Assembly (NCBI GenBank): GCA_013139755.1
Contig: WTAG01000703.1
Coordinates: 1 to 5,669, forward strand
Length of the DNA stretch: 5,669 nucleotides
Origin: Methylomarinum sp.
GTDB taxonomy: Bacteria > Pseudomonadota > Gammaproteobacteria > Methylococcales > Methylomonadaceae
Direction: 5' to 3'
In this document: positions 4,385 through 5,669 of the stretch, piece by piece
Numbering within the stretch: the stretch's first letter is position 1
Layout: each line of letters starts with the position of its first letter
Notes under the pieces: generated by a model
What the model saw: only the letters and a program-made list of their open reading frames with translations
What the model was told of the DNA's origin: nothing
The model's database searches: none
Program-made: the position numbers and the translations under genes

Positions 4385-4580
4385 CAATAAGGACTATTTT
4401 TATACGAGTAATAGAAAGGATACCCTGAAATGCGAAGCGCACCAGCAGTATTGTTTTAAAGATGTTTAAAACTCAGTCCTTTCCAGAAAGTAAAAAAGGC
4501 AAGGGTCAAGTCGCACGCCGTTACCTGCAATCAATCTAGCAGGCTCAAGTTCCATCTGGGGAATTACTCATTCTGCTGCG

Positions 4581-4614
4581 GAGCAGTGTATGAGAAATTA
4601 TGTACTGTAAGTTC
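4581..4614 (+). ncRNA. Group II intron domain V-like hairpin, probably a degenerate remnant
   Basis: These 34 nt begin GAGC and end GUUC, the paired ends of group II intron domain V, and 34 nt is the classic domain V length. The arms CAGUGUAUGA (4584-4593) and UUAUGUACUG (4598-4607) form ten pairs including wobbles, closed by a GAAA tetraloop. Against this, the usual 2-nt bulge position is not preserved, the tetraloop is offset by one base, and no intron-encoded reverse transcriptase lies upstream. It could be a decayed 3' fragment or coincidence. Confidence 0.25.
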
Positions 4615-4692
4615 CGTGAAGGCAAAGCTACAGGCCGTAATGTAAGTGAATCTGTATTAGCCTCGTTAACCTATTAAGAATGTTACCCCTCT

Positions 4693-4701
4693 GACTTGAA
4701 G
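4693..4701 (+). repeat. Left copy of 9-bp target-site duplication
   Basis: GACTTGAAG here is repeated exactly at 5033-5041. Each copy directly abuts the outer end of a 17-bp terminal inverted repeat, as expected for a 9-bp target duplication made on insertion. Confidence 0.85.
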
Positions 4702-4750
4702 CATAGGTATCTACACAATTTATGCAAATAACAATAATTAGGAGCTTGTG

Positions 4751-4790
4751 CTCTTAAGCCCTCGCCCCGGCGGGGAGAGGGTTGGGGCGA
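4751..4790 (+). repeat. REP-like hairpin unit 1 inside the MITE
   Basis: CCCTC (4759-4763) pairs with GAGGG (4777-4781) and CCCC (4765-4768) with GGGG (4772-4775), leaving a G/A mismatch and a GGC loop. The unit starts CTCTTAAGCCCTC and contains GGAGAGGGTTGGG; both 13-mers recur in unit 2. CCCTCTCC...GGAGAGGGTTGGG elements are common dispersed repeats in proteobacterial genomes. Confidence 0.7.
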
Positions 4791-4829
4791 CACTGCCATT
4801 AAGTAAGAGGTTTAAGAAAATATTTTTTG

Positions 4830-4872
4830 CTCCTCTTAAGCCCTCTCCTGATGGAGAGGGTTGGGTGAGGAG
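4830..4872 (+). repeat. REP-like hairpin unit 2 inside the MITE
   Basis: CCCTCTCC (4841-4848) pairs perfectly with GGAGAGGG (4853-4860) around a TGAT loop. An outer pair, CTCCTC (4830-4835) with GAGGAG (4867-4872), extends the structure. It shares 13-bp blocks with unit 1 (CTCTTAAGCCCTC at 4833-4845, GGAGAGGGTTGGG at 4853-4865). A third, inverted copy of the first block lies at 4924-4936. Confidence 0.72.
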
Positions 4873-5032
4873 AAATTAAAATAAACTCTTTTCGCCATTA
4901 ACTTAATGGCAGTGACTTGGGACGAGGGCTTAAGAGCAAGCATTGTCACTAAAAATTCCTAAGCTTAAGGGCATTATCTCTTTGTCCCTAATTCTGTATA
5001 GCAAAAAGAAAATACTTGTGTAGATACCTATG

Positions 5033-5041
5033 GACTTGAAG
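5033..5041 (+). repeat. Right copy of 9-bp target-site duplication
   Basis: GACTTGAAG abuts the right terminal inverted repeat and matches 4693-4701 exactly. It completes the target duplication of the 331-bp element. Confidence 0.85.
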
Positions 5042-5197
5042 GGGGAAGCAGCTATTACCCGTTTATTTAACAATGAGTGGAACAGGTAAATTCTTCGGGA
5101 CTATTAATAGTGGCATGTAGCGGAAGATTGATTGTGTAGGGTGGGTCGATCCAATATGGTGGTGTTTGCAGCACAAACGGATTCATATAAGCGAAAT
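5042..5197. other. Non-coding stretch between the MITE and the 3' repeat
   Basis: No gene is visible. Joining 4701 to 5042 (removing the element and one target copy) keeps one frame open from after the TAA at 4675-4677 to the TAA at 5087-5089, reading P-S-D-L-K-G-E-A-A-I-T-R-L-F-N-N-E-W-N-R. This could be a decayed gene that the element interrupted, but I do not recognise it. GTAGGGTGGGTCGA near 5140 resembles half of a dispersed repeat, with no inverted partner seen. Confidence 0.4.
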
Positions 5198-5342
5198 AAA
5201 CTTCTTCCATTTATAGCCAGCTATTATCAACTTATGGGTCATAAAATCTCCCTTATTAAATCCATTTATCCACATCACAGCTTATCAAGAGCTTAGCCCC
5301 AATAATTTCCCAGTTAAATCCACTCACCATAACGACTAATGC
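5198..5342 (+). repeat. Long direct repeat, copy 1
   Basis: This copy matches 5526-5669 at an offset of 328, then 327 bp. The first ~65 bp are clearly related but diverged: AAACTTC-[T/A]-TCCATTTATAG, then roughly 70% identity by eye. The last 79 bp (5264-5342) are identical to 5591-5669. The repeat carries a perfect DnaA-box 9-mer at 5266-5274 and a 6-bp direct repeat, AGCTTA, with an 11-nt period. No coding function is evident. Confidence 0.85.
5266..5274 (+). other. DnaA-box 9-mer (TTATCCACA)
   Basis: This is an exact match to the strong DnaA box TTATNCACA, within repeat copy 1. The role is unproven. It is one of three identical 9-mers in the last ~410 bp. Confidence 0.5.
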
Positions 5343-5525: not shown

Positions 5526-5669
5526 AAACTTCATCCATTTATAGTCGGCTATTATTAATATTAAGTTATAAAATATCTCTGATCGAATCAATTTATCCAC
5601 ATCACAGCTTATCAAGAGCTTAGCCCCAATAATTTCCCAGTTAAATCCACTCACCATAACGACTAATGC
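5526..5669 (+). repeat. Long direct repeat, copy 2 (cut by window edge)
   Basis: This is the second copy of the repeat at 5198-5342. Its perfect 79-bp block runs exactly to the last base of the window, so its true right boundary is unknown. The two copies imply a tandem period of about 327 bp. More units could lie beyond the edge. Confidence 0.85.
5593..5601 (+). other. DnaA-box 9-mer (TTATCCACA)
   Basis: This exact DnaA-box match lies in repeat copy 2 at the same place as in copy 1. It is therefore duplicated together with the repeat and is not independent evidence for an origin. Confidence 0.5.

What the first reader, a model, noticed from the sequence alone, without database searches (positions are those of the whole stretch)
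4693..5041. Intact MITE-like element: 331 bp, 17-bp perfect terminal repeats, 9-bp target duplication
The ends CATAGGTATCTACACAA/TTGTGTAGATACCTATG are perfect inverted repeats, and GACTTGAAG flanks both exactly. There is no coding sequence inside, so a transposase elsewhere must mobilise it. The perfect duplication implies relatively recent insertion and a possibly active family in this genome.
Basis: seen in the sequence. Interest (0 to 1): 0.72.

Follow-up and report, generated by a model that had tools for sequence, protein, structure and literature searches.

The report
REP-seeking mini-transposon with Tn5-like partner
A 331-base piece of non-coding DNA with matching ends is a small jumping element that most likely moves with the help of a Tn5-like enzyme made elsewhere; relatives with the same ends often land in the small hairpin repeats scattered through bacterial genomes, and often carry such repeats inside them.

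Summary
The MITE reading is supported. The 17-mer occurs in 71 of 311 genomes of one methanotroph order, reversed control 0 in the listing, and in Pseudomonas, Legionella massiliensis, Acinetobacter, Psychrobacter and Gallionella. A full-length partner exists in other genomes: an IS of about 1.36 kb with the same ends, 9-bp duplications and an IS4/Tn5-like transposase. An unoccupied homologue of this target lies in another genome of that order (L254); a Pseudomonas relative has exact empty sites in 3 genomes. Beyond the finding: such elements often land in palindromic REP-like hairpins (37 of 47 exact ends in Pseudomonas loci abut REP sequence, 0.13% of random positions), and this element and 15 of 17 Pseudomonas elements carry REP-like sequence inside. 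Not shown: that the window's host makes the transposase or that the element is active; its genome is not held. REP targeting by an IS4-family element has a published precedent, ISRm22 (PMC1525189).

The parts
4693..4701 (.). left target-site duplication GACTTGAAG
   Evidence: single copy GACTTGACG in the unoccupied homologue L254
4702..4718 (+). left terminal inverted repeat CATAGGTATCTACACAA
   Evidence: same 17-mer at both ends of the 1368-bp IS in L213
4702..5032 (.). non-autonomous element (MITE), 331 bp, no open frame through it
4749..4768 (.). left arm of internal 20-bp inverted repeat (partner 4919-4938)
   Evidence: I1, 95%
4759..4790 (+). REP-like palindrome 1 (CCCTCGCCCCGGCGGGGAGAGGGTTGGGGCGA)
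   Evidence: sequence; shares GGAGAGGGTTGGG with palindrome 2 (D18)
4791..4804 (.). left arm of internal 14-bp perfect inverted repeat (partner 4901-4914)
   Evidence: I8
4838..4884 (+). REP-like palindrome 2 (CCCTCTCC-TGAT-GGAGAGGG-TTGGGTGAGG), a dispersed repeat in the methanotroph order
   Evidence: 42 of 311 genomes at E<=1e-9; all listed places lie within window 4820-4907, most within 4838-4884;
4901..4914 (.). right arm of internal 14-bp inverted repeat; short matches to this neighbourhood occur in G001, G002 and G005
   Evidence: I8
4919..4938 (.). right arm of internal 20-bp inverted repeat
   Evidence: I1
5016..5032 (-). right terminal inverted repeat
5033..5041 (.). right target-site duplication GACTTGAAG
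4686..4690 (.). left stem (CCCCT) of the weak hairpin at the target; its partner AGGGG starts inside the duplication
   Evidence: joined site: fold energy p 0.03, but palindrome centred on the duplication p 0.67, against 200 random stretches of the window
5042..5045 (.). right stem (G run) of the target hairpin
4537..4645 (+). group II intron D1-D4 remnant next to the insertion, part of the repeat that occurs unoccupied in L254
   Evidence: (33.7 bits, gathering score 49)

Best explanation
A non-autonomous transposon (MITE) that is excised and inserted in trans by an IS4-family, Tn5/IS50-like DDE transposase recognising the 17-bp ends, with a 9-bp staggered cut at the target. A full-length partner IS (about 1.36 kb, about 410-430 aa) exists in other genomes with the same ends. 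The enzyme prefers hairpin-forming palindromes, often REP repeats. Elements with these ends repeatedly contain REP-like sequence between the ends, as this one does. SHOWN: ends, duplication, absence of coding sequence, partner IS with the same ends and duplication length in other genomes, empty sites, REP preference among the elements examined, a dispersed REP-like repeat inside this element. INFERRED: mobilisation in trans, cut-and-paste chemistry as in Tn5, presence of a suitable transposase in this host, and how REPs came to lie inside (most simply two ends landing in neighbouring REPs and afterwards moving as one unit).
For: Anatomy. 47 end pairs with duplications among the 170 sequences then held; one compound pair dropped, leaving 46 (39 under 1 kb, 7 of 1362-1374 bp). 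Full-length IS with the 17-mer (0-2 mismatches) at both ends and exact 9-bp duplications: L147, L150, L151, L154, L158, L160, L164. In the order, 14 of 30 fetched transposase loci are bounded by ends with at most 3 mismatches each, 1356-1371 bp apart; 8 of those 14 have an exact duplication (7 of 9 bp, 1 of 8 bp); L213 has the exact 17-mer at both ends. Genomes with the transposase carry the exact 17-mer more often: 17 of 26 against 54 of 285, Fisher p 1.3e-6, relatedness not corrected. Tn5 transposase is the top PDB match of the seven-sequence profile (E 8.4e-12); the alignment pairs its D, D and E motifs with D79, D174 and E311, invariant in 7 of 7 (that these are the catalytic residues of Tn5 is recalled). 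Empty sites: L202, L203, L205 with one copy of the 10-bp duplication; L254 for the window's own target. REP preference.
Against: No genome searched has a full-length sister of this 331-bp element; matches cover the REP-like stretch, the neighbouring internal repeat arm, or an end (13 genomes, 311 genomes with 2 candidates scored per genome). The host genome is not held. The two genomes richest in the ends, G011 (131) and G012 (97), gave no transposase hit, and 0 of 219 Pseudomonas genomes did. The first two full-length copies seen, L101 and L022, show no duplication (mismatched in L101; untestable at a contig end in L022), nor does L148. The window's target is only a weak hairpin (fold p 0.03, palindrome p 0.67), and half of the 46 sites do not pass 5% in either test (21 and 23 pass). 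The L254 homology continues only 11 columns (8 identical) beyond the junction. All 4 transposases tested score below NCBIfam's IS4 cut-offs.
Confidence: 0.88

Rival explanations
1. A REPIN/BIME-type REP cluster moved by a RAYT tyrosine transposase, whose outer inverted repeats are incidental.
For: The interior holds REP-like palindromes, one of which is a dispersed repeat in the order.
Against: 17-bp terminal repeats shared with a DDE-transposase IS, an exact 9-bp duplication, and empty sites with a single duplication. Known IS200/IS605 elements lack terminal inverted repeats and make no larger duplications (PMC2817692, passage read).
Confidence: 0.05
2. An internally deleted derivative of one particular full-length IS (classical MITE origin), whose middle was later filled by REPs.
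For: Ends agree with an IS such as L213.
Against: Just inside the 17-mer the window's bases differ from those printed for the IS copies. Only the first 5-7 inner bases were compared, so this is weak.
Confidence: 0.25
3. The element is immobile now: a relic kept as an intergenic hairpin or transcription terminator.
For: No transposase on the contig; host unknown; some end-rich genomes lack a detectable transposase.
Against: Perfect ends and duplication; the homologous target is unoccupied in another genome.
Confidence: 0.3

Closest known systems
Tn5/IS50 (IS4 family)
   Same: Partner transposase is homologous to Tn5 transposase, with D, D, E and the Y-R-E-K spacing conserved (signature recalled); 9-bp duplication (recalled for Tn5); the window's end agrees with the IS50 outside end (recalled) at 11 of 19 gap-free positions, reached by 0.9% of shuffled ends. 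Tn5 target sites are described as often palindromic (PMC1525189, passage read).
   Different: Remote homologue; different outer end bases; REP preference among the elements examined; the window element is non-autonomous.
ISRm22 (IS4 family, Sinorhizobium meliloti)
   Same: IS4-family element whose copies sit in REPs, at the palindrome axis (PMC1525189, abstract and passages read).
   Different: 6-bp duplications reported there, 9 here; autonomous; other host; its sequence was not compared.
hupL MITE of Ca. Thiomargarita nelsonii
   Same: MITE with a 10-bp direct repeat and a 19-bp inverted repeat and no parent IS found in ISfinder (PMC4853749, passages read).
R0/R2 repeats of Pseudomonas fluorescens SBW25
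   Same: MITE-like intergenic repeats with inverted ends, suggested to be moved by IS transposases in trans (PMC2718517, passages read).
   Different: 24- and 43-bp inverted repeats, 89 and 110 bp; sequences not compared.
REPINs / RAYTs
   Same: REP-based miniature mobile DNA; REP-like sequence lies inside this element.
   Different: 17-bp ends shared with a DDE IS and a 9-bp duplication here; different enzyme class.

Membership tests
MITE (non-autonomous DDE-transposon derivative) | short, no coding capacity | tested here: met
   331 bp, stops in all six frames
MITE (non-autonomous DDE-transposon derivative) | terminal inverted repeats and target-site duplication | tested here: met
   17 bp perfect, 9 bp perfect; 0 of 2000 simulations
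MITE (non-autonomous DDE-transposon derivative) | same ends as an autonomous element | tested here: met
   (in other genomes)
MITE (non-autonomous DDE-transposon derivative) | multiple copies in the same genome | not testable with these tools
   host genome not held; no full-length sister found in 311 genomes of the order (2 candidates scored per genome)
MITE (non-autonomous DDE-transposon derivative) | empty site | tested here: met
   L254 homologue without the element; homology past the junction is short (8 of 11 columns)
IS4 family, Tn5/IS50-like (partner transposase) | DDE triad and Y(2)R(3)E(6)K signature | tested here: met
   invariant in 7 of 7 aligned partners, aligned to Tn5 1mus; signature spacing recalled
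IS4 family, Tn5/IS50-like (partner transposase) | curated family score | tested here: inconclusive
   NF033590 IS4 model at 83-108.5 bits in 4 of 4 tested, cut-off 160; PF01609 matched in 6 of 7 members
IS4 family, Tn5/IS50-like (partner transposase) | ISfinder assignment of the ends | not testable with these tools
   no ISfinder access
REP-targeting IS (ISRm22-like behaviour) | insertions in REP palindromes | tested here: met
   at the level of the elements examined; the window's own site is only a weak hairpin
REP-targeting IS (ISRm22-like behaviour) | duplication of 6 bp as reported for ISRm22 | tested here: not met
   9 bp here; exact 10 bp in 14 of 17 Pseudomonas elements
REPIN (RAYT-mobilised) | bounded by REPs, without terminal repeat plus duplication | tested here: not met

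The most novel reading that the evidence does not exclude
A wide class of REP-seeking mini-transposons: one 17-bp end, found letter for letter from methanotrophs to Pseudomonas, Legionella massiliensis and Acinetobacter, captures host REPs between two copies and so carries its own landing sites, letting elements nest and build up inside REP clusters. In Pseudomonas the same end goes with a 10-bp instead of a 9-bp cut and no relative of the known partner transposase was found, so a second, unidentified enzyme may share the end.
Probability: 0.35. Interest if true: 0.62.

Novelty: new variant of a known kind. Interest (0 to 1): 0.48.

Why it matters
It gives a widespread small repeat, for which I found no name in print, a concrete partner enzyme, an end sequence and a target rule. 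Elements that seek REPs and carry REPs would help to explain how REP-rich regions grow and rearrange, and the shared 17-mer makes this testable in ordinary laboratory strains.

Tried and rejected
Viral contigs: 5 exact 17-mer matches; none has a second end with 3 mismatches or fewer in the held stretch; L003, whose match lies near the contig end, was not followed. Plasmid and phage records: no match to the element, nor of plasmids to the left flank. Search of one family (237 genomes) with the window's reductase at E<=1e-60: one match, 38% identical. Best relative of the window's receptor is 58% identical, so the host was not identified. Extra internal hairpins as a mark of the short elements: 18 of 39 short ones but also 4 of 7 full-length IS exceed shuffles, so not specific. 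Possible nested insertion in L067 (a 179-bp element inside a 462-bp one): suggestive, but the outer ends carry 2 and 4 mismatches. ORFs in two long Pseudomonas elements (L060, L031) were listed and none pursued. Rfam MIR6224 match to the interior (23.5 bits, gathering score 171) taken as chance. Literature: the 17-mer and four 13-base cores occur in no paper of the library. Other searches; I read passages of 6 papers (PMC2718517, PMC1525189, PMC4853749, PMC2817692, PMC3733652, PMC3686654) and only listings of the rest; in these I saw no REP-targeting MITE with these ends. ISfinder and subscription papers were out of reach.

Full report
OBSERVATION. The element is 4702-5032, 331 bp, with perfect 17-bp inverted ends and GACTTGAAG on both sides. 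In 2000 Markov simulations of the window, 1 had a separated perfect 17-bp inverted repeat within 1 kb and none had one with a flanking 9-bp duplication. No frame is open through it. The receptor protein of the window is recorded on one contig of 5669 bp, the length of the window, and no genome is held for it. Upstream lie a TonB-dependent receptor, a PepSY-type membrane protein and a ferredoxin/NAD reductase.

COPIES ELSEWHERE. Exact search favours exact ends by construction; variant ends such as CATAAG and CATAGC occur on IS copies. Real elements are shown by pairing: 47 pairs of ends (at most 4 mismatches each, 6 in all) with an exact 8-10-bp or one-mismatch 9-10-bp duplication were found in the 170 sequences then held. 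One compound pair was dropped, leaving 46: 39 short elements of 87-750 bp and 7 of 1362-1374 bp. In the order of a Methylobacter genome, 71 of 311 genomes carry the exact 17-mer, up to 131 times, and the reversed pattern 0 times in the listing.

PARTNER. L101 and L022 hold 1370-bp elements with these ends and transposases of 420 and 428 aa; neither shows a duplication (mismatched in L101, at a contig end in L022). Relatives at E<=1e-20 were found in 8 of 33 searched genomes. Among them Gallionella, Acinetobacter and Psychrobacter copies are bounded by the 17-mer (0-2 mismatches); seven have exact 9-bp duplications: L147, L150, L151, L154, L158, L160, L164. L148, L149, L155 and L162 do not; recombination between copies would explain it but was not tested. 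In the methanotroph order 26 of 311 genomes have the transposase at E<=1e-30. Of the 30 loci fetched, 14 are bounded by ends with at most 3 mismatches each, 1356-1371 bp apart, and 8 of these have an exact 8- or 9-bp duplication; L213 has the exact 17-mer at both ends. The other 16 were fragments, lacked an end or had poorer or differently spaced ends. Genomes with the transposase carry the exact 17-mer in 17 of 26 cases against 54 of 285 without (p 1.3e-6); relatedness is not corrected for. The profile of seven transposases finds Tn5 transposase as its best PDB match (E 8.4e-12), with the D, D and E motifs aligned; a single sequence found nothing. A wider search scored 7998 candidates and gave 3214 relatives at E<=1e-70; most of the 120 listed are unnamed or called hypothetical.

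EMPTY SITES. For the Pseudomonas element in L017, 11 loci from other genomes were examined: L202, L203 and L205 are uninterrupted with one copy of the 10-bp duplication, in the middle of a REP; L201 carries an element at the same place; 7 could not be aligned across the junction. For the window's own insertion, the left flank (with the group II intron remnant) matches 3 of 311 genomes. One homologue, L254, is 75% identical and runs through GACTTGACG into GGGGAA without the element; the other four hits stop before the junction and say nothing. Past the junction only 11 columns align, 8 of them identical, so this is good but not overwhelming.

TARGET. In 46 joined sites the fold energy is in the lowest 5% of random stretches of the same locus in 23, and a palindrome centred on the duplication in the highest 5% in 21 (about 2 expected for each). 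In 42 Pseudomonas loci 37 of 47 exact ends abut REP sequence (22 the upper half, 15 a looser lower-half motif), 10 do not match the motifs although some look like REP variants, and 0.13% of random positions match (motifs chosen after seeing the data). That REP head occurs 465-813 times per genome in four Pseudomonas genomes and 0 times in seven others. In Acinetobacter guillouiae the six full-length IS copies sit in palindromes of the CCTTCTCCC-N3-GGGAGAAGG type, one with a variant base; 12 unbroken exact ones exist in that genome (the pattern is palindromic and counts on both strands). The window's site is weaker: fold p 0.03, palindrome p 0.67.

REPS INSIDE. The window element contains two REP-like palindromes. 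The second belongs to a dispersed repeat matched in 42 of 311 genomes at E<=1e-9; all listed places lie within window 4820-4907. Shorter matches also touch the internal repeat arm near 4884-4928 and the ends. That these are REPs of the window's own host is inference. In Pseudomonas 15 of 17 elements contain a REP head against 0.26 expected from shuffles and 8.9% of equal-length random stretches (motif also post hoc). An internal hairpin as such is not specific: 18 of 39 short elements and 4 of 7 full-length IS. Interiors in other groups were not tested systematically for REPs.

MECHANISM. Best reading: trans-mobilisation by a Tn5-like enzyme, 9-bp stagger, preference for palindromes. How REPs get inside is inference; REP targeting makes two nearby ends likely, and two outer ends can then move as a unit. 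Neighbouring elements or ends 81 bp apart in Gallionella (L147, L115) and the possible nested pair in L067 fit this.

PUZZLE. In Pseudomonas the same 17-mer goes with 10-bp duplications (exact in 14 of 17 elements, one mismatch in 3), and 0 of 219 genomes have the transposase at E<=1e-15. The tool warns that an empty answer without a positive control shows nothing, though the same profile found matches.

KNOWN WORK. REP targeting by an IS4-family element is on record for ISRm22 with 6-bp repeats (PMC1525189, abstract and passages). MITE-like Pseudomonas repeats are described in PMC2718517 (passages). No paper in the library holds the 17-mer or the 13-base cores, and in the searches (listings, and passages of six papers) I saw no REP-seeking MITE family with these ends; subscription papers and ISfinder were out of reach.

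Noticed in passing
window 5198-5342 and 5526-5669: A direct repeat of about 145 bp in two aligned blocks (88% and 93% identical), spaced 327-328 bp; the contig ends inside it, perhaps an assembly break in a repeat array.
   Followed up: no
window 4537-4645: Group II intron D1-D4 remnant below the gathering score; the surrounding repeat has homologues in L254-L258, and group II intron matches lie elsewhere in L254, L255 and L257.
   Followed up: partly
L101, L147, L149, L022 transposases: NCBIfam model NF011312 (FlhF) matches these transposases over its positions 413-767, far below its cut-off, which suggests that the model contains an inserted transposase.
   Followed up: no
L017, L031, L064 and other Pseudomonas loci: Same 17-bp end but 10-bp duplications, and no detectable partner transposase in 219 genomes.
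   Followed up: partly
G011 and G012 (L032, L119): 131 and 97 exact ends per genome without a transposase hit.
   Followed up: partly
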